From positions 46,543,962-46,607,961 of the forward strand of contig OY720349.1 in the NCBI GenBank assembly GCA_963082975.1: a DNA stretch of 64,000 bases. Reading direction: 5' to 3'. The DNA comes from Labia minor. Lineage: Eukaryota > Arthropoda > Insecta > Dermaptera > Spongiphoridae. A model generated the notes under the pieces. That model saw nothing but the letters and a program-made list of their open reading frames with translations, made no database searches and was not told the origin of the DNA. The translations under genes were made by a program, and so were the position numbers. This document shows positions 8,864-53,388 of the stretch, piece after piece; positions within the stretch are counted from its first letter, which is position 1; every line of letters starts with the position of its first letter.

Positions 8864-9250
8864 GTGAATACAAATACAAATACCACTTATTTTTACTATT
8901 TATATTCTTATTTTTCTATCATTTTTTACTATCTCTGGCGAGATAGTATTGCGATCATGAAAATTTTCGATGTTGAGATTTTGATGTTTTTATACGTTTT
9001 GAAGGTTTCTGAATCATTTTCACTAAGGTTGAGAAAAATGTCTGTGTGTGTGTGTGTGTATGTGTGTATGTATGTAGGCAAGATTACGCAAAAACGGTTT
9101 GAGCTAGAATGATGCAATTTGGTACATGAGCATTATTCAAAATTCATAGTTTTCTATCAACTTTTGAAAATGTAGCTCAACCGGAAGAGGGTCATTACCT
9201 ACAACGTTTTGATTTTTTTTCCTCTAAAGTGACCGTAAAAATAAAGATAT
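8864..9250. repeat. (TG)n tract with adjoining repeat-like sequence
   Basis: A TG/TATG microsatellite at 9041-9078 is followed by GATTACGCAAAAACGGTTTG and ATGATGCAATTTGGTAC. This arrangement resembles many arthropod interspersed repeats. There is no second copy in the window, and the reading frames on both strands here are shadows of the microsatellite. Confidence 0.45.
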
Positions 9251-9530
9251 ATGTTTGATAATTTTTCACATGATTAATAATTGTATAAAACTGCTATATA
9301 TAGAATTTCAGCTTGATTGAATCGCTGAAAGTAACAGAATTAATTTTTTAACACTGCAAATCTCACGCGCCAACACGTGCCATGGTGCCATCAATAAAAA
9401 GCCAAACATGCGCTGGTTTAATATTTATTACTTATAATTTATAATTAATTAAATTTAATTTAAATATAATATATTATGTTATTTAATCCAATTCAGATTG
9501 CAAGATAGTCGAGTGGAGACACTCCAGCTT

Positions 9531-10180
9531 ATTACCGACCGACGATAGTAAGGGAGGTATTGTTTTCACACCAAATTTCACATGTGGAGATTTTTACATA
9601 TCTCCACGAATCATGCATTTTCTAAACAGAAAAAAGTATTTTTAGCATGATGTCTGTCCGTCTGTCCGTCCGTCCGTCTGTCCGTCTGTCCGTCCGTATA
9701 GATGTGTACAGCCTGAACGGCTCAACCGATTTTGATGAAATTTGGTATATTTACTTAATGCATCAGTGGGATGAATTGATCAACTTTTGGTGCAATTCCG
9801 GAAACCGGAAGTGGTAGTATTAGCGATCAACGATAGGAAGGAAAGGGTTATTTTCACACCAAAGGAGATTTTTTTATATATCACCACGAATCATGCATTT
9901 TGTAATGGTTTTATCCTCGAAAAAAATCATATTTATTAGTTTTTTCTTGATTTAAAATTATATGACGTCATCCAGCCATGCATGACGTCACAGCCTGGTC
10001 TTGCATATATATTATAAATAAAATAAAATTAAAAATGTTTATATTTATTATTTATGTATCCATATCTGTTTTTTATTACATTAATAGATATATGAAAATT
10101 ATTTGAAATTGTTTCTGTAGCTGGAAATTAATTTATTTCAAACCGTCGGTCGGTTCGGACCTGGCCACAGGTCAACTTAT
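9531..10180 (+). mobile_element. HINE (non-autonomous Helentron), long form, copy H1
   Basis: The hallmarks of Drosophila DINE-1/HINE elements are present. A subterminal repeat ACCGACCGACG lies at 9534-9544, and its inverse CGTCGGTCGGT lies near the 3' end. A (GTCY)n array of 11 units spans 9652-9695. A 3' hairpin GACCTG-GCCA-CAGGTC at 10158-10173 comes just before the terminal AACTTATTT. The flanks are T-rich with no target duplication, as expected for Helentron insertion between Ts. Internally the 5' module (CGACGATAG...CACGAATCATGCATTTT) is repeated at about 9815-9915. It carries two TGACGTCA palindromes (9963-9970 and 9983-9990). It has no coding capacity. Confidence 0.85.
9652..9695 (+). 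repeat. (GTCY)n array in HINE H1
   Basis: Eleven tetranucleotides, each GTCT or GTCC. The equivalent array in H2 (16471-16498) has seven, so the length varies between copies. Confidence 0.95.
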
Positions 10181-10599
10181 TTTTTAATAATTTAACATTA
10201 ATTTGTATGAATTATGCTTTAGATAATTTTCATAAAATCACCTTAAAACATAGGTTCTTAAACTTATGTACTCCACGGACCCCCACTTGAAAAATTTTTT
10301 TTTGACGGACCCCCATCACAACTTTAGGTACTTTACGTCATTTTATTAATTAATTTCTGGCTTACGATCTCATAAGGACAAGGATATATGATGAATATTT
10401 CTAACAGTGATTGGTGAATAACGATTTTTTTGCATATTGTAGAACACATTTTATTAGAAATTATAATATTGAAGAAAGAAAATACAAACATTGTCATAGC
10501 AACAAATCTCACAAATTATAATGGGTACTTACATTAAATTCATATAAATATTTTATAATTTTTTTCAGAAAATATTAAATAAGAAATATTTTAAAAAAT

Positions 10600-10654
10600 A
10601 ACTGCATCTATCTCATTAAATATAACTTACATATTTAATGAGATGTATGCAGTT
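10600..10654. repeat. Hairpin spanning the transposase stop codon, copy 1
   Basis: Arms 10600-10622 and 10632-10654 are complementary at 21 of 23 positions, with a 9-base loop. The minus-strand TAA stop (10637-10635) lies inside one arm. The same structure is at 25356-25410 in the second copy. Confidence 0.9.
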
Positions 10655-12494
10655 GTTTTCTTGAAACAAGAATCTCAATATCTGGCTTAATATTGGAAAC
10701 TTTTAATCTAAGATCCGGCTCTACATTTAATTTGTTTCTATATTTAGACTTAATATAAAATAGTACCGAAAAAGCTTGTTCGCATAAATATGTTGTGCAG
10801 AATGGAATCAAGTGTTGAAGTGCTTTATTTGCAAGCGCAGGATAATCTGACCTGAGAAGTAACCAAAAGTTGCTCAATTCAGTTTTGTTAAATTTTAGTT
10901 TATAAGTTGTATCACATGATAATTCCACGAGAATATCTTGTTCAGGTGCAGATAAATGTTTAGCATTTGTAATTTCCATATTAAATGGATCTCTGATCCA
11001 GTTATTGCAAGGATCAGGAGTAGAAAAATACTTCCTGAAGTTGCTTTTCAAAGTAATTAAATGTTCAACAAATAATTGACGCGTTTGATTAAGCAATTTT
11101 TCACTGGAGCTTTCTATGAAATCATTGAGAGTTGGAAAAGACTCATATACACCGTTCTGGATGCGTTTCGACCACAAGTCGATTTTTTTAATCATTGCTT
11201 CTATTTTATCTTCAACTTTAAATATATTTACAACAGTACCTTGCAGGCTCAAATTAAGTTCGTTCAATTTTGTAAAAATATCAGTCAAGTAAGCCACCTT
11301 AGCTAACCAGATAAAATCATTGAAACATTCGGTCAGTTCAAAATGCGCATCTATTAAAAACAATCGTATTTCATCTCGAAGCTCAAAAAGGCGAATGAGT
11401 ACTTTCCCGCGGGACAACCAACGTACATCTGTATGTAATAATAAATGTGTATGTTGACTACCCATTTCCTCACACAAAATTTTAAAAACTCTGGAATTAA
11501 GTGGACGAGCCTTAATGAAATTGACAATTTTAACTACTTCGTCTAATGTTCTTTTCAAATCTGGTGACATATTTTTGGCTGCTAATGATTCTCTGTGAAT
11601 GCAGCAATGATTCCAAACAACCTGAGGCGCAACATTTTTAATAAGAGCAATCAATCCAGTTCTTGTACCTGACATTGCACGAGCACCATCAGTGCAAATT
11701 CCAACACATTTTGGCCACTCTATTTCATTTTCGGTTATAAAATTATTCAAACTGTTAAATATGTCATTAGCTGTCGTTCGTGAAGGTAGTGAATCACAAA
11801 ACAATACATCTTCTTGTATTTGATTTTCAAACTCATATCTAATGAAAGCTAACAAATTGGCATTATTAGTGACATCAGTACTTTCATCCAATTGTAATGA
11901 GTAATAGTGACTTTTGCGCACTCTCGATATTAATTCTTCTTTTATATTACATGACATGTCTTCAATCCTATTCTTAACCGTATCATTTGATAATGAAATC
12001 AAATTTATATCGTTTGCTGCTTTAGTTCCTAACATTATATTTGTAATTACTTTTGTAGCAGGAAGAATTAATTGCTCTGCTATATTATGCGGCTTTCCTG
12101 CTTTAGCAATAAGTAGAGCTACTTCATATGATGCCATTACTGCTTTCTTACTCATACCACCAGATCCCGTCTTTACCATCAATTTCTGACTTGAATTAAG
12201 TTCTTCTTTTTTCATTTTAAAAAATTCGATAGACTTACTAACATGCTCGCTGTGCTTTGTTTGTAAATGACGTCTGAGATTAGCAGGTTTCATACTTTCA
12301 TTGGATAAACTTTCCTGACATAGAACGCAGACTGGTCTTTCCACATCATTGTTGCAAATATAAGTAAATCCAAATGATAAATAATCATCCGAATATTTTC
12401 TAGTTTTGCGTTTCTTGGTAGAGTTTGCTGTTGATGCCTCATCATCTGATTCTTTCCGTTTCTGTGTTGAACCAGTTTGTAGCCAACGATCCAT
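10635..12494 (-). CDS. hAT transposase, ZBED/Buster type, intact 619 aa
   Basis: This should cut and paste the surrounding element in the nucleus by recognising its terminal repeats. Order of parts: a basic, probably nuclear-localising stretch at about residues 25-33; a BED-type zinc finger with C56-x2-C59-x16-H76-x4-H81; an RNase-H-like core with D203 (LQLDESTD) and D269 (CTDGARAM); a conserved CCIHRES at 297-303 and DVRWLSRG at 356-363; and the C-terminal hAT dimerisation region with E572 in CEQAFSVL. The length of about 620 aa suits ZBED5/FAM200/SCAND3-like relatives, all domesticated or active Buster-type proteins. The first Met (MDRWLQ) starts the conserved N-terminus, so I use it. No intron, frameshift or missing catalytic residue is visible. 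An identical translation is encoded at 25391-27250. Confidence 0.95.
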   Translation of the reverse strand: MDRWLQTGSTQKRKESDDEASTANSTKKRKTRKYSDDYLSFGFTYICNNDVERPVCVLCQESLSNESMKPANLRRHLQTKHSEHVSKSIEFFKMKKEELNSSQKLMVKTGSGGMSKKAVMASYEVALLIAKAGKPHNIAEQLILPATKVITNIMLGTKAANDINLISLSNDTVKNRIEDMSCNIKEELISRVRKSHYYSLQLDESTDVTNNANLLAFIRYEFENQIQEDVLFCDSLPSRTTANDIFNSLNNFITENEIEWPKCVGICTDGARAMSGTRTGLIALIKNVAPQVVWNHCCIHRESLAAKNMSPDLKRTLDEVVKIVNFIKARPLNSRVFKILCEEMGSQHTHLLLHTDVRWLSRGKVLIRLFELRDEIRLFLIDAHFELTECFNDFIWLAKVAYLTDIFTKLNELNLSLQGTVVNIFKVEDKIEAMIKKIDLWSKRIQNGVYESFPTLNDFIESSSEKLLNQTRQLFVEHLITLKSNFRKYFSTPDPCNNWIRDPFNMEITNAKHLSAPEQDILVELSCDTTYKLKFNKTELSNFWLLLRSDYPALANKALQHLIPFCTTYLCEQAFSVLFYIKSKYRNKLNVEPDLRLKVSNIKPDIEILVSRKQLHTSH

Positions 12495-12964
12495 TTTATG
12501 GAGTAATTTATTAACATTGAACTACAATAATATAAATATAATATAAATATAATATAAATATAACGAATTATTATTTACTAGCTATGTTTTAATATGATTT
12601 TAAATGAATGTTTTAATATCATTTTAAATGAATGTTTTAAATCATTTTAATAAATGTTTTAAATCATTTTAAATAAATGATTTAATATCATTTTAAATGA
12701 ATATTAATTTATATAATAAATATATTTCGTAATTTGATTCTAAAATATTATTAATTTCGTAATTTGATTCTAAAATATTATTAAAATAAATATTTTTTAT
12801 TCATAAAACTAACTTATACTTACTCTCAAAAACAGCCTTTCTGGGAAATTGCAAAATGTGTTTAGTGTTTTTATAAAATAATGATCATGCAAATTACACT
12901 AAAAATTAAAAAAAATTATTAGCTATAATAAACTATTATTAGCTATAATTTAATTATAATTAAT

Positions 12965-13082
12965 TAAATTAATAAAAATAATTTAAAGATACAACTCGTT
13001 GAGAAATGAACTTATAATTAACATTAATAAAAATAATTTAAAGATACAACTCGTTGAGAAATGAACTTATAATTAACATTTG
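12965..13082. repeat. Tandem duplication inside hAT copy 1
   Basis: Two adjacent copies of a ~58-bp unit containing AAAGATACAACTCGTTGAG and ATGAACTTATAATTAACAT. The same duplication is at about 27721-27838 in copy 2, so it predates their separation. Confidence 0.9.
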
Positions 13083-13553
13083 CTTTAAAACTGTTTAAAA
13101 CCCCAGAGTGGACGCTGACAATTTGGGTTTTTCCGGGTAAGACTGTCCCCTCCCCTGGTTTTCCCCAATAACAAAGTGAAAGAAAATTCCCTTATATGCC
13201 TCCCCTTCCGAGCCCCTAAGAGGGGTTATTTTAAAGGAACAATCGAAAAATGATTTTAAATGAATGAATGGATGAAAATTCAAATTTTATATATAGTTTT
13301 TTATATATGTTTATTTATTCACAAAAAATTAATTGACATAATTATCAATTTAATAAAATAAAATAGTATTATTAATAGTATTAAATTATAGCCGTAATTC
13401 TCTAGGAGGATATAGTTAAACAATGAACTTTAAATATTTATATATGTATATATTTTTACGATGATTTTTTTCCGAGGACCGCGGACCCCTAGTAAAGGCT
13501 TCGCGGACCCCCAGGGGTCCGCGGACCACAGTTTAAGAACCACTGCCTTAAAA

Positions 13554-15990
13554 GATTGAAAAATTGATCGTTATTTCACTTCAAAAGTCAAATTGTGAAT
13601 TTTAAAATAGTTTATTCAAGTGGTTATGATATTCAAATATGAAAAAGTGTGCCTGATTAGATTGAATAATTTTATAATCCAATATTATTATTTTATCTAT
13701 ACTATACTCTTAGATGATTTTGAATAATTTATTTGAAAATGGTTAATTCAATAATTTTAATGTAAAAAAAATTGAATTAATTTTAAAAACAAAAAAATTT
13801 GGAGAATAGAGAAATAACCATATTCATAGATATTTAATTTAAGCTATAAAAGATTAGAGAAGATAATAACAAAAATTAATTAATTATCTAAGAAAATTTA
13901 AATCTTTCTTAAACTATAAAATTTTCAAAATGAAATAAAAATATTTTTTATTTTAAGTTTTAAAAAAATTGAAATAACATTTGATATATTATTTAGCTTC
14001 ATATTTATTTACTTCTAAATATTTTGTCATAATAATGATTTATTTGCTCTGTCATTAATTATTATTTTAGTGTAGTATAATAATACACTAATTGGCAATA
14101 TCCAATTTAGGTGTGTGTTCATTGATTTAATTTATAGACTGGATATAAGATAATGGATAATATATTATAACAAATAGTATCTTGTTTCCTTTATAAATAA
14201 ATTTCAAATCAATTTATTAACACTTACAATTAGAGTATTAAATTTATTGAGTCGAATAAACAATTATTGAATTCAATTTTCTAAGCAAATTAATTGATTT
14301 CATCAAAAAAAGGAACAAATGATTTAGTTATGGATGCTATTCTTGTAAATTTTCGTTTATATTAAGAGAATATTTCTTAATATTGACTAGTGAAATAATA
14401 TAAATAAAAAAATAAATTTTTTAAATTAGAAATAAAGGTAAACTTATTTAGAAAATTTATCAAAATTTGAATTATTCATTATTTGTCATGGGAATTTTTT
14501 ATATAAAGTAAGGGTTGAATATATATAACTTTATATATATATATATTAAAAAGGAATATTTTCTGAGATGAACGAATTCATTTACATGTGTTAATTAGTT
14601 TATTTTAGTTGGTTTAATTCATATTATTATAATTTTAAAATTTAAATATATAAAAGGTTGCCAAGAATTAAATTTATAGATGAGAATATTAACTTTAATA
14701 GCTTAATATTTTTTACACAATGCATTTGTTTAAAGTAGGTCCAGGTGGACCCCTAGGGGGTCTATGAAGATTTGAATACGGTCAACAAACTACAAAGTAG
14801 CTCTACTACTATTACTACTAATGAAATAAAAATCCTTATTTTGTTGTAAAATTGTTAAAAATTTAGTTTATTATAAATACCCATAGTTTTATGCTAAACA
14901 ATTATTAATTTATTTATATTGGGTCAAAGATAGGGGTGTATTAACCAAAAAGAAAGTTTAAATAGGACTGACAAAGAAAAAAAAAAGCTTGTGGAACGTT
15001 TGTTTAATGAAATCATTCTAATCTGTAAAAATATTCAAAAGTTTTTCTAATAATTTTTTTTTTTTTTAAATGGAACGATGGGAGATTTTAACTATGATGA
15101 CATATGAGTTCTTTTAAATGTATGGCATGTAACATTAATAGTGTTTTTGTTCCAATGCTACTTATATTACCAAGCAATAGTTGATATCAAATTGGTTCGT
15201 CAAATTTCCTACAGGTAAATGTGACCTCATCAATGAAACTCCTTCGCTCAGAATCAAAGATCAATATTGACAAACTAAAGGCCAACTTTGATCTGACCTA
15301 GCTTAGAGTGACTATCAATTATCATTGAATAATCTAATAAAATAATTTCTTAAATCTATAATTTATAATCCAAATTTGATTTTAATCTACGAATTTCAAC
15401 CTTCTCGACATTAAATATCCTACGAATCTAGTTTTTACAAAAAAAAAAAAAAATTCTAAATGTTTGTTCTATGATAATGAATCGATTTGTATTCGTATTG
15501 AATAGTATAGAGGATTTATTTTCATAGCAAGATGTTAATCTAACTGAATAATTAAGATAATTTGAAAAGCGTATCCGACCCCGAGTCGAGTCAATTACTC
15601 GGAGGCGATTTTCGGGGTAATTATGATAGCTATTTAATGCCAGTCGCCCACCTGGCCGGGAAACACTTTTTAAAATTATAATCGAAATTGTTGGTTGAGA
15701 TAACAAATTGAAGATAGACGTTATTATAAGTTAACTCCATTAAATTCGTCTGAGTATTTGTAAATAGCACAAGAGAGAAAATTTGTCTCCAATTTAATTC
15801 GATAACCTATAGACGTTTAGAAATTTAAATCATACCATTAGAATATCTTAAAATAATTTTAATTCTAATTATTTTTTGAATTTTAAATTAAAATAAATAA
15901 AATAAAAATTATTTTTATAAGAAAAGAAGATAATCTATTTATGAATTGTGAACTAAATAAATAAATCACTTATAAAATGTTTTCATATTT
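13554..15990. other. AT-rich DNA with small GC-normal patches
   Basis: Mostly AT-rich with no supported gene. Patches of ordinary composition lie at 14735-14830 (contains GGTGGACCCCTAGGGGGTC, a short palindrome-like block), 15180-15310 and 15565-15670. A 92-codon minus-strand frame at 15428-15706 has no recognisable domain. Confidence 0.5.
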
Positions 15991-15992
15991 GT

Positions 15993-16987
15993 TTACCGAC
16001 CGACGATAGTAAGGGAGGTATTGTTTTCATACCAAATTTCACACATGGAGATTTTTACATATCTCCACGAATCATGCATTTTCTTAACAAAATAAGTTGA
16101 CCTGTGGCCAGGTCCGAACCGACCGACGGTTTGAAATAAATTAATTTCCAGCTACAGAAACAATTTCAAATAATTTTAATATATCTATTAATGTAATAAA
16201 AAACATATAGGCATATAACATAAATATTTTTAATTTTATTTTATTTATAATATATATGTAAGACCAGGCTGTGACGTCATGAATGGCTGGATGACGTCAT
16301 ATAATTTTAATTAAGAAAAAACTAATAAAGATGATTTTTCTCGAGTATAAAACCAATGCAAAGTGAATGATTCGTGATAATATGTAAAAAATCTCCTCAT
16401 GTGAAATTTGGCGCGAAAACAATACCTCCCTTACTATCGTCGGTCGGTAAAAAAGTATTTTTAGCATGATGTCTGTCCGTCCGTCCGTCCGTCTGTCCGT
16501 ATAGATGTGTACAGCCTGAACGGCTCAACCGATTTTGATGAAATTTGGTATATTTACCTAATGCATCAGTGGGATAAATTGATCAACTTTTGGTGCAAAT
16601 CCGGAAACCGGAAGTAGTAGTATTAGCGATCGACGATAGGAAGGGAAGGGTTATTTTCACACCAAATTTCACATGAGGAGATTTTTTAAGTATTTTTAAG
16701 AATCATGCACTTTGTGGTGGTTTTATTCTCGAGAAAAATCAACTTTTTTAGTTTTTTTCTTAATTTAAAATTATATGACGTCATCCAGCCATTCATGACG
16801 TCACAGCCTGGTCTTACATATATATTATAAATAAAATAAAATTAAAAATATTTATGTTATATCTATATCTGTTTTTTATTACATTAATAGATATATTAAA
16901 ATTATTTGAAATTGTTTCTGTAGCTGGAAATTAATTTACTTCAAACCGTCGGTCGGTTCGGACCTGGCCACAGGTCAACTTATTTAT
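15993..16987 (+). mobile_element. HINE long form, copy H2, interrupted by H3
   Basis: The outer copy consists of 15993-16089 plus 16450-16987. It aligns throughout with H1: the same 5' ACCGACCGACG, a (GTCY)7 array at 16471-16498, an internal repeat of the 5' module near 16625-16700, paired TGACGTCA at 16776-16783 and 16796-16803, the 3' hairpin GACCTGGCCACAGGTC at 16961-16976, and the terminal CAACTTATTT. A shorter member of the same family sits between its two parts in reverse orientation. Confidence 0.88.
16090..16449 (-). mobile_element. HINE short form H3 nested inside H2
   Basis: Read on the minus strand it begins TTACCGACCGACGATAG and ends with the hairpin (16114-16099) and CAACTTATT. 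It lacks the (GTCY)n array and everything between the two 5' modules of the long form. It therefore has one module plus the tail. Its TGACGTCA palindromes are at 16292-16299 and 16272-16279. It sits in an A/T run with no target duplication, as HINEs do. Confidence 0.88.
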
Positions 16988-17639
16988 TTTAATTTTATGG
17001 TCGGAATTTATCTTGTCATTTCTTCTTTTGGAATTAAAATTAAACTAGATTCTAGAATATAATTGAATAAATTTAATATAAACATAGTGATAGATATACT
17101 CATAAATGAGAATATGATTTCAGTTAAAAGCCTATTTCATAGAAATTATCTAAAATAAAATATGATATCTATTCATAAAGAGAAATTAGAAGTAATTTCA
17201 TTTAATTTCTCCAGCTAATATCTATATAATGAAGATAGTTCAACAAAGTTCACATTCTAACGATCCATTTGCTATAATAGCAACACAAATTAACAATACG
17301 TAAGAGAAACTCAATCCATTTAGAAATTTAATATAAAAAATATTTTTCTAATTCTTTCACAGAATTTCTTTAGTTGAATAAAAAAAAAGAAAAAATTAAT
17401 CAACATTTACATACATAATAAGAATTAAGTATAAAATCTTTTTTAAAATTATAATTTCCCGTCATTTCATTTAATTTTTTTAATCATTATTTTTAACTCC
17501 ACGTTCGAGTAAACTATGCACTTTGTGACTTTTTTAAGATTTATTTTTATTTATTTTTTTTTTTCATTTTTCATTATATTTTATATTTTTATTTATATTT
17601 ATTTATTTATTTATTTATTTATTAACAATTTTTTTAATT
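16988..17639. other. AT-rich DNA, T-rich tract at the end
   Basis: The stretch 17515-17635 is almost pure T/A with ATTT repeats. The frame beginning at 17516 is a low-complexity artefact. Nothing else was recognised. Confidence 0.55.
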
Positions 17640-18640
17640 TAGTTATGAGGGTGATTTTTCGCTATATAGTATGTGGGTACTCCCTTTGGATTCTCACCTT
17701 TAAACTTGTCTGGCTTATTAATTTTTACCTAGATGTTCCTTCTCTCTCCCTCACATTTTTACGCTCTTGAGTCAATTTGTTTCTAATCCCTAAAAGATAG
17801 GCAACCAATCTCGACGTCGCTCGTTTGCATTGCGCTGCTCGTTCCATGTTTCGCCTCTCTGTCTTTTTCACTTTTTCTCTTTCTCTTGACAACTGCTCTC
17901 TTTTTCAAACAGAAGGCATTTTTTCTTGATATTGTTTTAAGATGACTAGATATAATTTGCAGATTCCAATCTCAACCAATTCTTATTCTTACGATAATGT
18001 GCAATTTTTGAAAAAGCGCTTCTTATCAGCAAGAATTCTAAAATGGCGGTTACGTTTGTAAGAACAAAAAAAAAACACTTTATTCTCGATCATAAAAACT
18101 AACTATAATAGACAGAATATATGAGAGCATTTCACTAACGTCGACTCATTATTATAAAATTTTATTCTAAAAGTGCTAATGAAATTTTTCAACTCGTTAG
18201 AAGCAAAAGGAGTTTTCAAAAAATCAATATTTACTTTTAAACAAATTTGAAGTAAAATTCTAAATGATTAAGTAATTTTTTTTTTTTTGTTGATAAAAAG
18301 TGAATACTGATTAATAAGAGTTGATTAGATCATCAAATAGAAACTCATCCCCTACTCCCATCCCTCGAATTCATTCAAAATCATTTCTCGTATTTCTTCT
18401 GACTGTGAAGGGCATTCCACTGTTAGAGCTAAAGGGAGGGGGTTATCTACATAGGTAATATATGTTTAATGGTAATGAAGTTGTAGACCGTGCAAGAACA
18501 ATCGCGATGGTTGTCCGTTGATTGCAGTTCGTTAATTAAAAGCCCCGAGTGCTCGTAAAACTGACGTAGGGGGCAAAGAATCTCCGCTACCAATCTCACC
18601 CTATGAATCCAAAACAACTCACTCACCCCTTACAATCATT
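17640..18640. other. GC-normal islands at 17640-17900 and 18340-18640
   Basis: Two blocks of ordinary composition are separated by AT-rich DNA. The first has CTCGACGTCGCTCGTTTGCATTGC-like sequence and pyrimidine runs. Near 18040 there is AAAATGGCGGTTA, which resembles a YY1/Pho-type site and recurs at 54125. The second holds CAGTTCGTTAATTAAAAG with a homeodomain-type core. No coding frame is supported. They are candidate regulatory elements. Confidence 0.35.
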
Positions 18641-19288
18641 CACCTGTGTAGATTAATTAATAATAATCATCATCATGACATAAATACGAATACAAAATAT
18701 ATTTGAAGATTATTTGAATTCCAGTTTTGATTTTTATGGTAACTGAGAAAGAAAAATCTTAATTAAAATTCAAATATACGAGAAATTATCTGAACGTCCA
18801 TTCTAAATAAAACAAATGAATATAAAATATATTGGATAATAAATTCATTTTTAATCCGAAATCAAATGATTCAAGTTTGATAATTTAAAACAAGAATAAA
18901 TTTATTCTTTATTATAATAATATGATATTTTTTATATTATAGATATTGGCTAGATGACCATTGAACAATGTAAATAATATATTTTATATGATATTACAAT
19001 AATATACAATATAATATCTCATTAAACTTGAAAAAAGAAAAATTTAAAAATGTTGAGTTTTTCTTTTAAATATAAATATAACTTCACGAATTGTGTCTAT
19101 TTCAGTGTAAGATCGAGGGTTAAAACTTTAATTAGAATGCGTGGTCAAAGCCGAGTAATGGAAAGGAGGGAGCTTTCACTTCATTCATTCACTTTACAAA
19201 CTTCTGGGAATTCGTCTAACCCTTAATCTCCGAGTATATCTAACTGTTCCTTTATTAAATGACATTCACCATTACGATTTATATAATA

Positions 19289-19323
<35 letters not shown>

Positions 19324-20340
19324 AAATAGAAGGTATTAAATTATGTTTAAATCCAATAAGAATAAAATACAAGAATTTAATCGTGACTGGAGGAATTGTG
19401 GAAAAATGGAGGGAGAAAATCTCATTGGATTTAGTACTTGGAAAGGTAAAGTTAATTAAACACGGCAGGTTGTTTTAGTGGAACTAATTATATGTGAACA
19501 ATTAAACATTTATTGCAATAGACACTTTAGCTAACAACCAAAATCAGGAGGTGACTACGATATGAACATGCTAACGGTGAATGGGTGGCTTGGAAAAAAA
19601 GAACGGGTGGTGGGCAGTGGTCTGTTCTCATACTGAAATCGACATTATTTTTTTTTTTTTTTTTTTTTGCTGCATTCAAAATATGTTCCACTGCATATGT
19701 TCAATTTAATTAAAAGGGTTTAGAGACAAAGTACTCAGTTGACCACTCGAAAAGTTCGAAGGGACATTCATTTATTGAGGGGAAAAAGTTTTTTTTTAAA
19801 TATTTTTTTTTTATACCATTGAATAATCAACGTCAATTAAAGATTTTTATTTTAGTAAAACGGCATGAACTCAAATCACTGGCACATGACGTTTCAGCGT
19901 CAGTTGTTTTTCGAGTTTTATTCATGTAATAAATGAATTAATGATTATGATTAAAAAATAATTTTTAAGTTTTTTTCATTATTAATTATTTATATATATA
20001 TATACCTTCATATTTATTTTTAAATAAATAATAAATTTAAATTATTATTATGAATTAAATAGAAATTATAAAATCAATCACAATCGACGTCTGTTGGTTG
20101 TGTTGAATAATATATTTCCGTTTATGAAAAACATTTAAATTAGAAAAAAACATTTTTAAATAATTGAAATTTAAAAATTAAATAGTATTTTGGAATTAAT
20201 CAATTATTTATTTCATTGAAAGAAAGTGACAAAGGGAAAACATAATTTTGTATGTGGCTCAGATAAATTTAAAAAGAATTTTCAAAATTAATCATATCAA
20301 TTTCTTAGAAATATTTCAATTAAAATTTCAATATACACTA
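18641..20340. other. AT-rich DNA with islands at 19130-19250 and 19370-19760
   Basis: No gene was seen. An (AAT)n microsatellite is at 19286-19322 and a poly-T run is near 19649-19668. The islands have ordinary composition and no exon-like frame. Confidence 0.5.
19286..19322. repeat. (AAT)n microsatellite
   Basis: About twelve AAT units. Confidence 0.95.
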
Positions 20341-20355
20341 TCTTTTAATGATTAT

Positions 20356-20616
20356 TAAAAAAAACCTCTGACTTTGGACGTCCTATCAAGCCGGTTATAT
20401 CAAAGAGGTGTCCTATGATCAGGAGAACGGGGCCTCTCAACCCCTTTACCTTGATTTTTCTTGATCGGAGGCGCTATCAAGTAGCTTTTCCCCAATGTTG
20501 TTCCCGGAGGCTGGGTTGACTCCCTCGCATAGACCCCAGCTAGGGAAATTCCCTTGCCAGGACTTGAACCCGGGACCATTTGAAGGTTCGCTACCCACAC
20601 ACCCAATGGCGCCTTC
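20356..20616 (-). repeat. tRNA-SINE family 1, complete copy with target duplication
   Basis: On the minus strand the head begins near 20615 (GGCGCCATTGGGTGTGTGG). It has a box A-like TGGGTGTGTGGGTAGCG and a near-canonical box B GGTTCAAGTCC, the internal RNA polymerase III promoter of tRNA-derived SINEs. The body contains GATAGCGCCTCCGATCAAG and the core CGTTCTCCTGATCATAGGAC. It ends in AGAGG plus a run of Ts rather than poly-A. TTTTAATGATTAT occurs on both sides (20343-20355 and 20619-20631), consistent with LINE-type target-primed insertion. The open frame across it is incidental. Confidence 0.85.
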
Positions 20617-20632
20617 TTTTTTAATGATTATA

Positions 20633-21275
20633 GCAGCTTCAAATTAAGTGGTGAATAGTATATACAGTCTTTAAAGCTTAAATATTTCTAATAAAATTTT
20701 TTAAATAGTAATATTTATATATCACTACATATTATTTTATTATTACATAATTTTGATTGTAAAAAATAAAATTATTATTTATTTAGTGTTTGTTACAATA
20801 TTAAATTTATCTATATTTGCATGATATTAAAACTTGCAACAGTTATAATTAATAAGTATGATGAAAAAGATAACAATAAATTAATAATGCGTTAATGATT
20901 ATTTAATCAATTTGGTTTTATATATGTTCAATTTTGGATCACTAGTCTAAAGATGAAAAAAATAAATCAAATATAATCTCACCAATGATTTATGTCATAT
21001 TTATGTTATAGATTATATCATAATTGGATTATACTTTTTTTGATTAAAAATATGAATAAAATGTAATATTATATTAAAATTATAAAATCCAAACGAGATA
21101 AAAAGAAATAATAAAAAAGGAATATATATATATATTCATTTGAAAGAAATTATTACATTATATTTATAATATAATGTAATATTTTTTGCGATTGTAATTA
21201 ATTATTTTATTTAAGTTATTCTCATAAAATTTATAAAAAAAAAATAATTTGTCTCATTTTATACTATTTATAAAA
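20633..21275. other. AT-rich DNA, nothing recognised
   Basis: No coding, repeat or structural signal that I can support. Confidence 0.55.
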
Positions 21276-21545
21276 TGATAGTGAAGGCACCATTTTTCAA
21301 TCTTACAGTATTTGCGGCACAGTTTTTAATCATATTTTTAATCGTGCCTTCTCCTCCCTTAAAATGTAGTTTTTTGGTCGTTTTATATTATTTTTCACTA
21401 ACGGCCAAAACAAAAGTTTTTCTATGTGTATATGAAAAGCATTTGTTTCAGTGACAGGTAATAAATATTTTTATGCAATATTTTCTTTTAAATATTCTTG
21501 CGCGCCCTCCAAGGAAGGCGCGCCCCCAGGTTGAGAACCTCTCTA
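21276..21545. mobile_element. hAT terminal remnant with GC-rich hairpin
   Basis: The right edge reads GCGCCCCCAGGTTGAGAACCTCT. Its complement AGAGGTTCTCAACCTGGGGG is a typical hAT terminus. Just inside is a hairpin, GCGCGCCCTCC (21500-21510), AA, GGAAGGCGCGC (21513-21523), pairing at 10 of 11 positions. I could not find the matching left terminus or a target duplication, so the left boundary is a guess. Confidence 0.5.
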
Positions 21546-21739
21546 GATCAATCGGAAGTTTTAATTTAAAAAATCTATTTTAATTCTGGTTCTTTTAAGA
21601 TATTGATATTTGACATTAACAGAATAAAAAAAAAATAAATATATGTAAAATATGCTATATAAAGTAATATTTTATTCTTAGAAATTCATTATTTTCCTAA
21701 AGTCAGCATCGTTCCTTTTTAATTTCATTTTTTCCTGAT

Positions 21740-22130
21740 GTGTTTTGAATATGTTAATACTTTATTTCAAAGGAAGAGTTAATAATAATAGACTGAAACG
21801 AATAGATGAATTGAAAAATGAGTGAAATTCCCACCGGAAAGCAAAATCTAATGGGGAGAAATTGAATGGAACCCTGGACTAATTACAATTAGTATCAGGT
21901 TGGTTATCCATAATGCAAAAGTGTACCATATTTGCCACAAAAAGTTATAATGGAAATACATCTAGAATTTCTTTTAATGAGCTTTTATTGAAAACCATCC
22001 AAGCTGTGATTGCGTTATGATGACCTTTATGCGTGTCTGGCAAAAGAAATGGCTCAATCCAATTAGCGAACTTTGCTCTAGCAATAATAATTTAATCCTT
22101 AATCAAATCGGGGAAAAATGATTTATCTCT
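21740..22130. other. GC-normal island with homeodomain-type palindrome
   Basis: This contains CTAATTACAATTAG at 21879-21892 (6-bp inverted arms, two ATTA-class cores). There is no coding frame. It is a candidate enhancer-like conserved element; conservation cannot be tested here. Confidence 0.4.
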
Positions 22131-23254
22131 CTATACTCGTTGCTATATGATTTTCGATAATAAATAAAATAAAAATCTTCCTGGTTTGTTCAATGAATTT
22201 TTTATGAGTACTCTCCGAGTGCAAGATTATGTAGTTGTTTATTCAATATTTTATTTTATTTTATTGAAATTGATTGGGCGGGTAGAAACACATCAAGGGA
22301 GTTTTCAAAAAATAAAAATAAAAAAAAAAATTACTCATAAAATCTCGTTAAATTAAATGTAGCATATCGGCAATTGTAAATTTTCTTCCATGCATTTTTA
22401 TACATCCCTTCATTAATAATGATTTAATTGATCAGCCCAGACCAAATGGAAATTATTCATTGAAGTCCCTGATTGATTTCGTAATGCCCATTTCATTTAA
22501 TTCATTTATTATATATTAATATACCAAATAAAATTCAGGAATAAATATAATTATTATCATTAAAAACAAAGAATAATCTAAATATTTGTTAAAAAATATC
22601 ATTATATTAAATAATATAATTTTATACTAAAATATATTATAATTTTATTTATTTATTTTTACTATATAGTTTAAAGTATTGACAAGCATCTTTTAATTCC
22701 GAATCACAAATTTATTAAATATTCTTTAATTGCGACTCTATTATTTTGATTGCACTACAGATATATCTAGCATATTTATTAAAAGCACCTTTAGAGAAAA
22801 CAACTCTAAGACGATTAGTTTATTTGTGAACCTAAATCGGTTTATTAAGTTAAATTTATTATCTTACAATAAAATTTTTAAATATTTTTATTTAATAAAC
22901 AAAAAAAAAACAATTTTATTAATAAGGTGTAATTTTAAATGATTAATTGCTACTAATTATTAAGTGCAATTTAATGTGATTTTCAATTATACAAGTTATT
23001 TAATCTGATTTTTTTTTGTATTTTACATTAGAGATTAATATGGGTTACTTATAAAGATACAACAAAACACGATTATATTGTTGGTGGATATTCGGTGATT
23101 TATAGTAGATAGAACATGTTGTTTAAATATATAATATTAGATTGTTAAATTCTAAATTATTTTTATATAACTTATAAAATAAAGTTACGTTATGATTAGT
23201 AAAAACAATCACATTTTTAGTGTGTAACATTAAAATTTTTTCTTCTTTAATTAA
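22131..23254. other. AT-rich DNA, nothing recognised
   Basis: The 70-codon frame at 22730-22942 has an unremarkable AT-driven composition. No repeat family was recognised. Confidence 0.55.
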
Positions 23255-23976
23255 AGACATATCTATCTATCTATCTACAGGGGTTGGACAAAAAATATGG
23301 AAACCCCTTATGAAATGCATGTTTGAAAAGAAAGAATGATTTTAATGAAATATGTAGGTGCCGCTGACGTTTTTGACTACTGACGCCACCTATACAACGT
23401 CGTAAATGTGCTAAACAGTTCAGTTGTTGTCGGAGTACTGTTATGTGAGGTAGTCATTGCATTATATCAGAGTAAATAGACTTCGAACGTGGGCAAATTG
23501 TTGGAGCACGTATAATTGTGACGAAAAATAAGAAGACCACAGCTGCAAAAGTTACTGCTGAAATGAATGTTGTGCTACCGAATCCTGTGAGTACCAAAAC
23601 AATTAGAAGGGAGCTTCATAAACAGGGAATTGCTGGCCGTGCTTAAGCAAAGAAACATGTTTTTTTAAAGGTGTTTCCATATTTTTGTCCAATCCCTGTA
23701 TCTCTGTGACTCTACGGAACTCAAAAGTACTTACCAGCAGCAATCACATTTCTCCTAGTGTCTCTATTCTAACCCACAACCATCAAATATCCATCCTAAT
23801 AGTCCACCCACAGCGGCTTTGGTCTTCCAAGCAGAAGTTTCCCCAATCTCTCTACCAATATATTTTTCGCCCATTCTTTCCTTTCCCATTCTAGCCACGT
23901 CCCTTGCCCAACACAGCCTTCTCAATTTTATAACCCTAACTATGTCAGGAGATGCATAGAGGTCATGTAATTTCAC
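23255..23976 (-). pseudogene. Non-LTR retrotransposon 3' fragment L1, split by Tc1
   Basis: The coding part at 23701-23976 (minus) gives HDLYASPDIVRVIKLRRL and RDVARMGKERMGEKYIGRE. These match the C-terminal region of animal endonuclease/reverse-transcriptase proteins, usually written (E/H)LY..PDIV..IK..RLRWAGHVARM. The element is strongly 5'-truncated and frameshifted. Its 3' tail is the (TATC)n tract at 23261-23277, now separated from the body by the Tc1 insertion. The microsatellite tail suggests the RTE group but does not prove it. Confidence 0.8.
23278..23698 (+). mobile_element. Internally deleted Tc1-like element in a LINE tail
   Basis: The ends CAGGGGTTGGACAAAA and (complement of right end) CAGGGATTGGACAAAA form the inverted repeats. 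They continue as ATATGGAAAC, and TA flanks both sides (23276-23277, 23699-23700). The interior at 23479-23659 translates on the plus strand to the N-terminal helix-turn-helix part of a Tc1 transposase (GQIVGARI, TKNKKTTAAKVTAEMN, NPVSTKTIRRELHKQG) with a stop soon after. The DDE catalytic region is absent. On either side is the microsatellite-tailed 3' end of a non-LTR element. Confidence 0.9.
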
Positions 23977-24090
23977 AAAAATATTTGAACATTTAAAAGA
24001 GGGGCTTTTTATATAAATAATAAATGAAAATTATTTATTGCATTGATGTGGCAAGTATCCAACGAATACTCACTTATCAATGATAATTAT

Positions 24091-24095
<5 letters not shown>
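23977..24095 (+). repeat. Repeat E, uninterrupted copy (empty-site paralogue)
   Basis: About 118 bp, nearly identical to the sequence split by hAT copy 2 (24943-25004 plus 28302-28365), with about four differences. It contains ATTTATTG once (24035-24042), followed by CATTGATGTGG. This is exactly the pre-insertion target of that hAT. Confidence 0.9.

Positions 24096-24121
<26 letters not shown>
24093..24121. repeat. (TA)n microsatellite
   Basis: An uninterrupted AT dinucleotide run of about 14 units at the end of repeat E. Confidence 0.95.
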
Positions 24122-24124
<3 letters not shown>

Positions 24125-24359
24125 TTATATTTGATTATATAATATTTAATTAAAAAAAAACAATTATAACTATTAGATGTATGTCAATCAATTTTCAAAA
24201 GACAGTATGTGATAAATTCATCATCATAGTGAAAGATTGTAAAGTTCTCATCTTTAATTTATATTTCTTCCCAATGATTTAAAATTTATTTTATTAAATT
24301 AGAACAAAAAACTTTTATTTAGATTTTGAAATTCAGTAAAAAGAAAGGTAATTTTTTCT

Positions 24360-24700
24360 CTTAATTTCAACAATTATCACTGAAATATTCAGGAAATGTT
24401 GTCAGCCTGAAGATAAATGTTTAAGTTCATTTCCAAAAAGCCAGCCAAGCTGCAAATGACATTAATTTGCAATGGGGTTGATTTAGTAGCCGTGGGTGCA
24501 ATTGTCCAGCTTAGAAACTTTCCCTCAAATGCTCCACTGTTTACCCCAAATCCCCTCTCCACCCCAACAAATTTCCCTCTGGCAATTCTTTCAAACGAGA
24601 CCCAGTGAATAGATGGAGAGTATATCATAGATTCTAAAAATGTCGCCTGTTCCTTCTTTCTTTTCATTTCGAATGTCATCTCGTCTCTTCTTTTCTACTT
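24360..24700. other. GC-normal island, candidate conserved non-coding element
   Basis: It has overlapping open frames on both strands (63 and 96 codons) with no family resemblance, which argues against real coding. It includes GACATTAATTTGCAATGG and a CCCCAAATCCCCTCTCCACC run. Confidence 0.4.
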
Positions 24701-25355
24701 ATCGGTTTTTGCTTTAGCTGCTATTTTGGCACAAGCTTCCTTTTATTAAATTTTCATATTCCTTTTTTAGCCGAATTAAATTATATAATTTCAATATGTG
24801 AACATTTATATACAATTAATAAAAAGAATTTAATAAATTTATAAATAAAAGAATTTATTTATTTATTTATTATAAAATACTAAATTAAAAAATATTATTA
24901 AACAAAATCTTATAAAAATAATAGGTTAGTTTTATGTGAGAAAAAATATTGGAACATTTATAGAGGGGCTTTTTATATAAATAATAAATGAAAATTATTT
25001 ATTGCATAGGTTCTTAAACTTATGTACTCCACGGACCCCCACTTGAAAAAATTTTTTTTGACGGACCCCCATCACAACTTTAGGTACTTTACGTCATTTT
25101 ATTAATTAATTTCTGGCTTACGATCTCATAAGGACAAGGATATATGATGAATATTTCTAACAGTGATTGGTGAATAACGATTTTTTTGCATATTGTAGAA
25201 CACATTTTATTAGAAATTATAATATTGAAGAAAGAAAATACAAACATTGTCATAGCAACAAATCTCACAAATTATAATGGGTACTTACATTAAATTCATA
25301 TAAATATTTTATAATTTTTTTCAGAAAATATTAAATAAGAAATATTTTAAAAAAT

Positions 25356-25410
25356 AACTGCATCTATCTCATTAAATATAACTTACATATTTAATGAGAT
25401 GTATGCAGTT
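25356..25410. repeat. Hairpin spanning the transposase stop codon, copy 2
   Basis: The same 23-bp arms (21 matches) and 9-base loop as at 10600-10654. Confidence 0.9.
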
Positions 25411-27250
25411 GTTTTCTTGAAACAAGAATCTCAATATCTGGCTTAATATTGGAAACTTTTAATCTAAGATCCGGCTCTACATTTAATTTGTTTCTATATT
25501 TAGACTTAATATAAAATAGTACCGAAAAAGCTTGTTCGCATAAATATGTTGTGCAGAATGGAATCAAGTGTTGAAGTGCTTTATTTGCAAGCGCAGGATA
25601 ATCTGACCTGAGAAGTAACCAAAAGTTGCTCAATTCAGTTTTGTTAAATTTTAGTTTATAAGTTGTATCACATGATAATTCCACGAGAATATCTTGTTCA
25701 GGTGCAGATAAATGTTTAGCATTTGTAATTTCCATATTAAATGGATCTCTGATCCAGTTATTGCAAGGATCAGGAGTAGAAAAATACTTCCTGAAGTTGC
25801 TTTTCAAAGTAATTAAATGTTCAACAAATAATTGACGCGTTTGATTAAGCAATTTTTCACTGGAGCTTTCTATGAAATCATTGAGAGTTGGAAAAGACTC
25901 ATATACACCGTTCTGGATGCGTTTCGACCACAAGTCGATTTTTTTAATCATTGCTTCTATTTTATCTTCAACTTTAAATATATTTACAACAGTACCTTGC
26001 AGGCTCAAATTAAGTTCGTTCAATTTTGTAAAAATATCAGTCAAGTAAGCCACCTTAGCTAACCAGATAAAATCATTGAAACATTCGGTCAGTTCAAAAT
26101 GCGCATCTATTAAAAACAATCGTATTTCATCTCGAAGCTCAAAAAGGCGAATGAGTACTTTCCCGCGGGACAACCAACGTACATCTGTATGTAATAATAA
26201 ATGTGTATGTTGACTACCCATTTCCTCACACAAAATTTTAAAAACTCTGGAATTAAGTGGACGAGCCTTAATGAAATTGACAATTTTAACTACTTCGTCT
26301 AATGTTCTTTTCAAATCTGGTGACATATTTTTGGCTGCTAATGATTCTCTGTGAATGCAGCAATGATTCCAAACAACCTGAGGCGCAACATTTTTAATAA
26401 GAGCAATCAATCCAGTTCTTGTACCTGACATTGCACGAGCACCATCAGTGCAAATTCCAACACATTTTGGCCACTCTATTTCATTTTCGGTTATAAAATT
26501 ATTCAAACTGTTAAATATGTCATTAGCTGTCGTTCGTGAAGGTAGTGAATCACAAAACAATACATCTTCTTGTATTTGATTTTCAAACTCATATCTAATG
26601 AAAGCTAACAAATTGGCATTATTAGTGACATCAGTACTTTCATCCAATTGTAATGAGTAATAGTGACTTTTGCGCACTCTCGATATTAATTCTTCTTTTA
26701 TATTACATGACATGTCTTCAATCCTATTCTTAACCGTATCATTTGATAATGAAATCAAATTTATATCGTTTGCTGCTTTAGTTCCTAACATTATATTTGT
26801 AATTACTTTTGTAGCAGGAAGAATTAATTGCTCTGCTATATTATGCGGCTTTCCTGCTTTAGCAATAAGTAGAGCTACTTCATATGATGCCATTACTGCT
26901 TTCTTACTCATACCACCAGATCCCGTCTTTACCATCAATTTCTGACTTGAATTAAGTTCTTCTTTTTTCATTTTAAAAAATTCGATAGACTTACTAACAT
27001 GCTCGCTGTGCTTTGTTTGTAAATGACGTCTGAGATTAGCAGGTTTCATACTTTCATTGGATAAACTTTCCTGACATAGAACGCAGACTGGTCTTTCCAC
27101 ATCATTGTTGCAAATATAAGTAAATCCAAATGATAAATAATCATCCGAATATTTTCTAGTTTTGCGTTTCTTGGTAGAGTTTGCTGTTGATGCCTCATCA
27201 TCTGATTCTTTCCGTTTCTGTGTTGAACCAGTTTGTAGCCAACGATCCAT
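25391..27250 (-). CDS. hAT transposase, ZBED/Buster type, intact 619 aa, second copy
   Basis: The translation is identical to the protein at 10635-12494. It has the BED finger (C56, C59, H76, H81), D203, D269, the CCIHRES and DVRWLSRG motifs and E572 in CEQAFSVL, with no stop or frameshift. The upstream region (27251-28301) and the hairpin across the stop codon are preserved too. Each copy could supply active enzyme if transcribed. Whether either has a working promoter cannot be told from sequence alone. Confidence 0.95.
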   Translation of the reverse strand: MDRWLQTGSTQKRKESDDEASTANSTKKRKTRKYSDDYLSFGFTYICNNDVERPVCVLCQESLSNESMKPANLRRHLQTKHSEHVSKSIEFFKMKKEELNSSQKLMVKTGSGGMSKKAVMASYEVALLIAKAGKPHNIAEQLILPATKVITNIMLGTKAANDINLISLSNDTVKNRIEDMSCNIKEELISRVRKSHYYSLQLDESTDVTNNANLLAFIRYEFENQIQEDVLFCDSLPSRTTANDIFNSLNNFITENEIEWPKCVGICTDGARAMSGTRTGLIALIKNVAPQVVWNHCCIHRESLAAKNMSPDLKRTLDEVVKIVNFIKARPLNSRVFKILCEEMGSQHTHLLLHTDVRWLSRGKVLIRLFELRDEIRLFLIDAHFELTECFNDFIWLAKVAYLTDIFTKLNELNLSLQGTVVNIFKVEDKIEAMIKKIDLWSKRIQNGVYESFPTLNDFIESSSEKLLNQTRQLFVEHLITLKSNFRKYFSTPDPCNNWIRDPFNMEITNAKHLSAPEQDILVELSCDTTYKLKFNKTELSNFWLLLRSDYPALANKALQHLIPFCTTYLCEQAFSVLFYIKSKYRNKLNVEPDLRLKVSNIKPDIEILVSRKQLHTSH

Positions 27251-28365
27251 TTTATGGAGTAATTTATTAACATTGAACTACAATAATATAAATATAATAT
27301 AAATATAATATAAATATAACGAATTATTATTTACTAGCTATGTTTTAATATGATTTTAAATGAATGTTTTAATATCATTTTAAATGAATGTTTTAAATCA
27401 TTTTAATAAATGTTTTAAATCATTTTAAATAAATGATTTAATATCATTTTAAATGAATATTAATTTATATAATAAATATATTTCGTAATTTGATTCTAAA
27501 ATATTATTAATTTCGTAATTTGATTCTAAAATATTATTAAAATAAATATTTTTTATTCATAAAACTAACTTATACTTACTCTCAAAAACAGCCTTTCTGG
27601 GAAATTGCAAAATGTGTTTAGTGTTTTTATAAAATAATGATCATGCAAATTACACTAAAAATTAAAAAAAATTATTAGCTATAATAAACTATTATTAGCT
27701 ATAATTTAATTATAATTAATTAAATTAATAAAAATAATTTAAAGATACAACTCGTTGAGAAATGAACTTATAATTAACATTAATAAAAATAATTTAAAGA
27801 TACAACTCGTTGAGAAATGAACTTATAATTAACATTTGCTTTAAAACTGTTTAAAACCCCAGAGTGGACGCTGACAATTTGGGTTTTTCCGGGTAAGACT
27901 GTCCCCTCCCCTGGTTTTCCCCAATAACAAAGTGAAAGAAAATTCCCTTATATGCCTCCCCTTCCGAGCCCCTAAGAGGGGTTATTTTAAAGGAACAATC
28001 GAAAAATGATTTTAAATGAATGAATGGATGAAAATTCAAATTTTATATATAGTTTTTTATATATGTTTATTTATTCACAAAAAATTAATTGACATAATTA
28101 TCAATTTAATAAAATAAAATAGTATTATTAATAGTATTAAATTATAGCCGTAATTCTCTAGGAGGATATAGTTAAACAATGAACTTTAAATATTTATATA
28201 TGTATATATTTTTACGATGATTTTTTTCCGAGGACCGCGGACCCCCAGTAAAGGCTTCGCGGACCCCCAGGGGTCCGCGGACCACAGTTTAAGAACCACT
28301 GATTTATTGCATTGATGTGGCAAGTATCCAACGAATATTCACTTATCAATGATAATTATCCTATC

Positions 28366-53034: not shown

Positions 53035-53167
53035 CTTCAGAGGTTTAGTGGTTAGCAAGACTGTCTACAACAGATTCAAGTTCGGGTCTAGTGAAATTCA
53101 ATTATGAATACTTTCTCTTTAAAGCTCTGCGTGATCCTCAGAGTCTATCTGCAAAAAATAATAATAA
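53035..53167 (+). repeat. tRNA-SINE family 2, second copy
   Basis: The tRNA-like head has TTTAGTGGTTAGCAAGAC (box A-like) and AGTTCGGGTCT (box B-like) about 40 bases apart. The body ends GCGTGATCCTCAGAGTC, close to the segment in the SINE at 6978-7768, and the tail is AAAAAATAATAATAA. Confidence 0.65.
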
Positions 53168-53388
53168 AATTATATGACGTCACCCAGCCCTTCATGAGGT
53201 CACAGCCAGCTCTTACTTATATATTATAAATAAAATAAAATTTAAAATATTTATGTTATATCCAAATCTGTTTTTTATAAATTTTTAATTAATTTAGATA
53301 AATTAAAATTATTTGAAATTGTTTCTGTAGCTGGAAATTAATTTATTTCAAACCGTCGGGTGGCCACTGGTCAACTTATTTATATTTA
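53168..53388 (+). mobile_element. HINE 3' fragment, copy H4
   Basis: It begins at AAAATTATATGACGTCA, inside the family's tail, and runs to CAACTTATTT. Only the first TGACGTCA is intact; the second has become TGAGGTCA. The 3' subterminal repeat and hairpin are damaged (CGTCGGGTGGCCACTGGTC). It is the oldest-looking of the four copies, with the 5' half missing. Confidence 0.85.

What the first reader, a model, noticed from the sequence alone, without database searches (positions are those of the whole stretch)
10249..28301. Two nearly identical, intact Buster-like hAT transposons 14.8 kb apart
Both copies are 3,297 bp and encode the same 619-aa transposase with all catalytic residues. Each has its own perfect 8-bp target duplication (CCTTAAAA; ATTTATTG), both fitting nnnTAnnn. 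I found only two substitutions by eye. This means independent, very recent insertions and a family that may still be active, in a window where every other transposase is dead.
Basis: partly seen in the sequence, partly recalled or inferred. Interest (0 to 1): 0.75.

Follow-up and report, generated by a model that had tools for sequence, protein, structure and literature searches.

The report
Young jumping-gene invasion, mostly intact copies
The two matching elements belong to a TcBuster-like DNA transposon (jumping gene) that has recently filled this genome with well over a thousand almost identical copies, and most of the copies sampled still carry a complete transposase gene.

Summary
Copies A (10249-13545) and B (25005-28301) are both 3,297 bp, differ at two sites, encode the same 619-aa protein, and have perfect 8-bp nnnTAnnn duplications with unrelated flanks. 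They are part of a larger event: the 604-Mb genome holds 1,555 exact copies of each terminal sequence and 1,382 of a 200-bp stretch of the gene, or roughly 1,400-1,600 elements. Of 39 elements read from one chromosome region, 33 keep the full frame and 32 also the three catalytic residues. Mean pairwise difference is 0.15%, and changes in the gene look neutral, so copies are intact because they are young. TA centres 41 of 41 left 8-mers. About 1,464 further ends with 1-3 mismatches remain mostly unexplained. Verdict: a new member of a known kind (Buster hAT) in a very recent burst dominated by autonomous-length copies.

The parts
10249..13545 (-). Element copy A, 3,297 bp; strand given is that of its gene
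   Evidence: two private changes against 39 other aligned copies
25005..28301 (-). Element copy B, 3,297 bp; has the majority base at every variable site among 40 aligned copies
10635..12494 (-). Transposase ORF of copy A, 619 aa, single open frame
   Evidence: BED finger and hAT dimerisation region below Pfam cut-offs; 45% identity to recalled TcBuster
25391..27250 (-). Transposase ORF of copy B, 619 aa, identical protein
13514..13545 (-). CAGTGG end of copy A, upstream of the gene
   Evidence: exact 32-mer found 1,555 times in the genome
10249..10284 (+). CATAGG end of copy A, downstream of the gene
   Evidence: exact 36-mer found 1,555 times in the genome
28270..28301 (-). CAGTGG end of copy B
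25005..25040 (+). CATAGG end of copy B
10241..10248 (.). Target duplication of copy A, left (CCTTAAAA)
13546..13553 (.). Target duplication of copy A, right (CCTTAAAA)
24997..25004 (.). Target duplication of copy B, left (ATTTATTG)
28302..28309 (.). Target duplication of copy B, right (ATTTATTG)
12527..13080 (.). Tandem repeats (11-, 24-, 30- and 55-bp units) in the leader of copy A; the number of 30-bp units is the commonest length difference between the aligned genomic copies
27283..27836 (.). The same tandem repeats in copy B

Best explanation
A and B are two insertions of one autonomous, TcBuster-like Buster hAT transposon in the middle or the immediate aftermath of a genome-wide burst. 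The 619-aa protein is the transposase. Its BED finger probably binds the terminal and GGGGTCC-type subterminal repeats, and its D203/D269/E572 active site cuts the element out and joins it to staggered breaks 8 bp apart centred on TA, giving nnnTAnnn duplications. Copy number rises when the element moves during replication or when the gap left behind is refilled from a sister copy. Shown here: ends, duplications, target motif, intact frames, copy number, low divergence, changes in the gene at the neutral expectation, and a copy with a nested element found at two places. Suggested by the data: exchange between copies. Inferred: the chemistry, expression in the germline, and that movement continues today.
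For: Structure of A and B. Copy number: 1,555 exact CAGTGG ends, 1,555 exact CATAGG ends, 1,382 exact 200-bp gene segments, no hit for the reversed control patterns. Autonomous length dominates: 92 of the first 100 CAGTGG ends on contig C1 pair with a listed CATAGG end within 8 kb, and 88 of the 92 are 2,995-3,968 bp. 33 of 39 fetched elements have the 619-codon frame, 12 encode the window's protein exactly, 32 keep D, D and E; the 71 matches that were scored in the protein search are all 100% identical and all on C1. Youth: mean pairwise difference 0.150% over 780 pairs, maximum 0.45%, 57 singletons in 40 copies or 0.043% per base. Neutral expectation: 31 distinct changes in the gene, 21 missense, 3 stop, 7 synonymous, against 20.5% synonymous expected. 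Duplications perfect in 35 of 38 elements with both flanks read; TA at positions 4-5 in 41 of 41 left 8-mers. Derivatives: L045 and L073 carry the same 638-bp insert at the same place with different left flanks; one copy sits inside another with its own duplication (L075).
Against: No RNA, small-RNA, population or excision data, so present activity is inferred. Pfam matches to hAT dimerisation and BED finger are below the curated cut-offs (19.5 against 21.4 bits, 16.7 against 20.6). The TcBuster comparison uses a recalled sequence. No solved structure matched by sequence and the single-sequence model is useless (mean pLDDT 34.1). 6 of 39 fetched elements lack the full frame and one more (L047) has lost D269. 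L049 has unlike flanking 8-mers and L043 and L056 one mismatch each. The fetched sample is 40 consecutive exact CAGTGG ends from the first 15.2 Mb of one contig; choosing by an exact end favours young copies. About 1,464 ends with 1-3 mismatches are mostly unexplained.
Confidence: 0.9

Rival explanations
1. Assembly or segmental duplication: B is a copy of A made by duplication of DNA, or by haplotype duplication in the assembly, not by transposition.
For: Near identity and closeness of the two copies. Gaps under 20 kb are in excess: 11 against 4.7 expected in one list, 6 against 1.2 in another.
Against: The match stops exactly at the element ends, flanks are unrelated, and each copy has its own perfect target duplication; the same holds for most other copies read (35 of 38 perfect duplications).
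Confidence: 0.02
2. A burst that has already ended: the family expanded recently but is now silenced (for example by piRNAs), so the copies are intact only because there has been little time to decay.
For: Changes in the gene fit the neutral expectation and include three stops, two frame-breaking deletions and loss of D269. Private differences average 1.4 per copy.
Against: Some copies show no private change (WB, L065, L048 and others), and a 442-bp non-autonomous relative is also young. Neither shows activity today.
Confidence: 0.4
3. A host-domesticated multicopy gene kept by selection rather than a selfish transposon.
For: Buster-family proteins have been domesticated, as in ZBED5 (PMC3606216, passages read), and the frame is open in 33 of 39 fetched copies.
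Against: Transposon ends and target duplications on nearly all copies read, more than a thousand dispersed copies, and a missense to synonymous ratio at the neutral expectation.
Confidence: 0.01

Closest known systems
TcBuster (red flour beetle; Buster family of hAT)
   Same: Transposase 45% identical (269 of 598 aligned positions, 64% positive) with all three catalytic residues aligned (TcBuster sequence recalled); 8-bp nnnTAnnn duplications, as reported for TcBuster (PMC3499496, passages read).
   Different: A separate family at 45% identity; a repeat-rich leader of about 1 kb; roughly 1,400-1,600 young copies in one genome. I have no copy count for TcBuster in its host to compare with.
Mar (Buster MITE of Drosophila willistoni)
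   Same: Buster-type nnnTAnnn duplications and signs of recent mobilisation (PMC3517528, passages read).
   Different: Mar is a 610-bp non-autonomous family whose potentially full-length copies are relics; here autonomous-length copies dominate the sample.
Hermes (Ac-family hAT with solved transpososome)
   Same: BED finger plus hAT catalytic layout; in Hermes the BED domain binds short subterminal repeats (PMC10368747, passages read), and this element has GGGGTCC/GGACCCC repeats at both ends.
   Different: Ac family, duplication consensus nTnnnnAn (recalled), which fits only 14 of 41 sites here; no sequence match to any solved chain at E up to 1.
ZBED5 / Buster1 and other domesticated Buster genes
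   Same: Same transposase family (PMC3606216, passages read).
   Different: Those are host genes; this one has transposon ends, target duplications and changes at the neutral expectation.

Membership tests
hAT superfamily | 8-bp target duplications | tested here: met
   Perfect in both window copies and in 35 of 38 elements with both flanks read, the two window copies included.
hAT superfamily | Short terminal inverted repeats and length of about 2.5-5 kb (PMC3942097, passage) | tested here: met
   Imperfect ends sharing GGTTCTTAAAC at both termini; 88 of 92 paired ends are 2,995-3,968 bp.
hAT superfamily | BED finger and C-terminal hAT dimerisation region | tested here: inconclusive
   Pfam Dimer_Tnp_hAT E 8.5e-4 and zf-BED E 0.0074, both below the curated cut-offs.
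hAT superfamily | D-D-E catalytic triad | tested here: met
   D203, D269, E572 align with TcBuster D223, D289, E589; the TcBuster sequence and these assignments are recalled.
Buster family of hAT | nnnTAnnn target duplications | tested here: met
   TA at positions 4-5 in 41 of 41 left 8-mers.
Buster family of hAT | Transposase falls with Buster transposases rather than Ac or Tip ones in a tree | tested here: inconclusive
   45% identity to recalled TcBuster, E 2e-180; no tree was built because no reference set of hAT proteins was at hand.
Ac family of hAT | nTnnnnAn target duplications (consensus recalled) | tested here: not met
   14 of 41 sites fit.
Active transposon | Transposition or excision observed | not testable with these tools
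   Needs individuals, RNA or a cell assay.

The most novel reading that the evidence does not exclude
This is an ongoing invasion caught early: a TcBuster-like element, probably acquired recently from another species, has reached more than a thousand copies while most of them are still autonomous, before internally deleted copies and silencing take over. Close pairs may mark local hopping. The host would then be a natural system in which to watch how a DNA transposon escapes control at high copy number, and its transposase a ready-made candidate gene-transfer enzyme.
Probability: 0.45. Interest if true: 0.68.

Novelty: new member of a known kind. Interest (0 to 1): 0.5.

Why it matters
As I recall the field, DNA transposon families in animals are usually seen after the event, as fields of deleted copies and MITEs around a few damaged autonomous ones. 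Here 33 of 39 sampled copies keep the full gene and exact ends occur at about 2.6 per Mb. That makes the early phase of an invasion, its rate of decay, exchange between copies and hand-over to non-autonomous elements directly measurable. TcBuster is being developed as a gene-delivery enzyme (PMC11184336, passages read), so a relative with many naturally near-identical intact copies is a natural candidate to test.

Tried and rejected
Relatives of the transposase were sought in viral contigs, prokaryote genome contigs, plasmids and phages: none found. tRNA and Rfam scans of the window gave nothing. A solved-structure search by sequence found nothing at E up to 1. The structure model made without an alignment has mean pLDDT 34.1 and was not used. 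No remnant of the element was found elsewhere in the window by blastn or tblastn; a decayed-looking GGTCC/GGACC stretch near 14740 was seen by eye only.

Local hopping was tested and left open. Gaps under 20 kb are in excess in both position lists (11 against 4.7, p 0.005; 6 against 1.2, p 0.0004). In the first list the excess is gone at 50 kb and 100 kb (15 against 11.4, p 0.16; 25 against 21.5, p 0.20), in the second it persists (9 against 2.8; 12 against 5.5). The 11 pairs under 100 kb in the fetched sample are not more alike than random pairs (4.9 against 5.0 differences, p 0.47). Domestication was rejected because changes in the gene fit the neutral expectation. Horizontal transfer could not be tested: no other animal genomes are held here. 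The host was not identified.

The roughly 1,464 further CAGTGG-type ends with 1-3 mismatches (3,019 minus 1,555) are mostly unexplained. From the measured divergence only about 40 should belong to the young family (1,597 expected against 1,555 exact). A 442-bp non-autonomous relative has 149 places by an internal stretch, but I did not see how many of their ends fall in this group; at least one (L062) has an exact end and is counted among the 1,555. The rest I could not see.

Literature: seven full-text searches, of which I saw the listings and starts of abstracts, listed no paper that I recognised as describing this element or a comparable autonomous Buster burst. The paper that defined the Ac and Buster families is not held.

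Full report
What is in the window. Copies A (10249-13545) and B (25005-28301) match over exactly 3,297 bp with two substitutions and no gaps, and the match does not extend into the flanks. The substitutions are at 10295/25051 and 13490/28246, both outside the gene. A lies between two CCTTAAAA, B between two ATTTATTG. Each holds a 619-aa frame on the minus strand, the only ATG frames of 150 aa or more in 64 kb, and the proteins are identical. The ends are imperfect inverted repeats: CAGTGGTTCTTAAACTG... upstream of the gene and CATAGGTTCTTAAACTT... downstream. GGGGTCC/GGACCCC repeats follow, three near the CAGTGG end and two near the other.

Scale. The window lies on contig C6 of a 604-Mb, 71-contig genome that carries no name. 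In it the exact 32-bp CAGTGG end occurs 1,555 times, the exact 36-bp CATAGG end 1,555 times, and an exact 200-bp stretch of the gene 1,382 times; the reversed control patterns gave 0 in each. Corrected for the measured divergence these become 1,597, 1,602 and 1,631. The last figure may be too high, because I chose a stretch without variants in the fetched copies, and a few of the CAGTGG ends belong to non-autonomous elements. I therefore write roughly 1,400-1,600 copies. The protein search scored 71 of 3,641 first-look candidates, all on C1 and all 100% identical with an open frame, which is a lower bound.

Autonomous length dominates. I paired the first 100 listed CAGTGG ends of C1 with the first 100 CATAGG ends (both reach 41.0 Mb). 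92 pair within 8 kb and 88 of the 92 are 2,995-3,968 bp; the others are 1,782, 2,742, 6,019 and 6,658 bp. Eight ends on each list stayed unpaired. I fetched the first 40 CAGTGG places (0.25-15.2 Mb). One of them (L076) covers only part of the outer copy of a nested pair and was dropped, which leaves 39 elements. Of these, 33 have the 619-codon frame, 12 encode exactly the window protein and 32 keep D203, D269 and E572. The six without the frame are L040, L059 and L063 (stop codons), L061 and L075 (frame-breaking deletions) and L062, a 441-bp non-autonomous element. L045, L050 and L073 run to or beyond the end of the fetched stretch on one side, so their right flanks were not fully read.

Age and decay. 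I aligned 40 elements: 38 fetched (without L062) plus A and B. Mean pairwise difference is 0.150% over 780 pairs, with nearly the same median and a maximum of 0.45%. There are 57 singletons, 1.4 per copy or 0.043% per base. With a recalled insect mutation rate of about 3e-9 per base and generation this is of the order of 1e5 generations. That is an upper bound, since sampling few of many copies inflates singletons and assembly errors add to them. In the gene there are 31 distinct changes, two of them shared between copies: 21 missense, 3 stop and 7 synonymous, against 20.5% synonymous expected by chance. So there is no sign of selection after insertion. B has the majority base at every variable site; A has two private changes. 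Ten of the 36 pairs among nine shared sites show all four combinations, which points to exchange between copies or recurrent mutation. Exchange is expected if gaps left by excision are repaired from other copies (inference).

Target site. Both flanks were read for 38 elements, the window copies included: 35 have perfect 8-bp duplications, two have one mismatch (L043, L056) and L049 has unlike 8-mers, perhaps from recombination between copies. All 41 left 8-mers have TA at positions 4-5, while the Ac-type pattern fits 14. Around the duplication there is a palindromic preference, AAT one base before it and ATT one base after it: T in 29 of 35 and A in 29 of 35 at the inner bases (binomial p about 2e-8 and 3e-8), weaker at the others (p 2e-5 to 0.003). 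The positions were chosen after seeing the counts. I do not know whether this wider motif has been described for Buster elements; searches listed no paper that I recognised as saying so.

Derivatives. L045 and L073 carry the same 638-bp insert (no difference over the compared stretch) at the same element position but have different left flanks, so an element carrying cargo seems to have transposed again. One copy is inserted in another with its own duplication. L062 represents a 442-bp non-autonomous relative: its left 65 bp are 98.5% and its right 212 bp about 92% like copy A. Forty of 1,148 candidates were scored, all 98-100% identical to it, and 149 places match an 80-bp internal stretch with up to 3 mismatches, the 100 listed all exactly. 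That relative is young too, and could be moved by this transposase (inference).

What speaks against a simple story. CAGTGG-type ends with up to 3 mismatches number 3,019, so about 1,464 are not exact; the young family explains about 40 of them and I could not characterise most of the rest. Related, perhaps older, elements therefore probably exist, and a pure arrival from outside is not shown. The fetched sample was chosen by an exact end on one contig and favours young copies. Gaps under 20 kb are in excess, but neighbours are not more alike and in one of two lists the excess is gone at 50 kb, so local hopping is open.

What it is. The protein aligns with TcBuster over 598 positions at 45% identity, including the catalytic residues (recalled sequence; PMC11184336 passages bear out only two of its residues). 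Target duplications are of the Buster type as reported for TcBuster and Mar (PMC3499496 and PMC3517528, passages read). Pfam gives only sub-threshold hAT dimerisation and BED matches. I file it as a new Buster hAT family in an unnamed, AT-rich genome, probably an insect (inference). The mechanism is standard hAT cut-and-paste; what is unusual is the timing and scale.

Verdict. The kind is known; the state, a young burst still mostly of autonomous length, is what deserves follow-up.

Noticed in passing
9668-10193, 16084-16450, 16471-16995, 53162-53359: A repeat family at 85-92% identity within the window; at 16084-16992 two copies face each other as a large inverted repeat. Copy A begins 56 bp from the end of one of them.
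   Followed up: no
8928-9527: About 91% identical to the 638-bp element nested inside genomic copies L045 and L073 of the transposon.
   Followed up: partly
46446-46955 and 57627-57971: Short mariner-like pieces: a Mos1-type HTH domain and a DDE_3 fragment, no long frame.
   Followed up: partly
about 14725-14765: A GGTCC/GGACCCC...GGGGGTC stretch that looks by eye like a decayed end of a related element; blastn with the whole element did not find it.
   Followed up: partly
L062:3303-3743: Young 442-bp non-autonomous relative, 149 places by an internal stretch; its inner part is unlike the window element.
   Followed up: partly
L049: A copy with a full frame whose two flanking 8-mers differ at four of eight bases, possibly a product of recombination between copies.
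   Followed up: no
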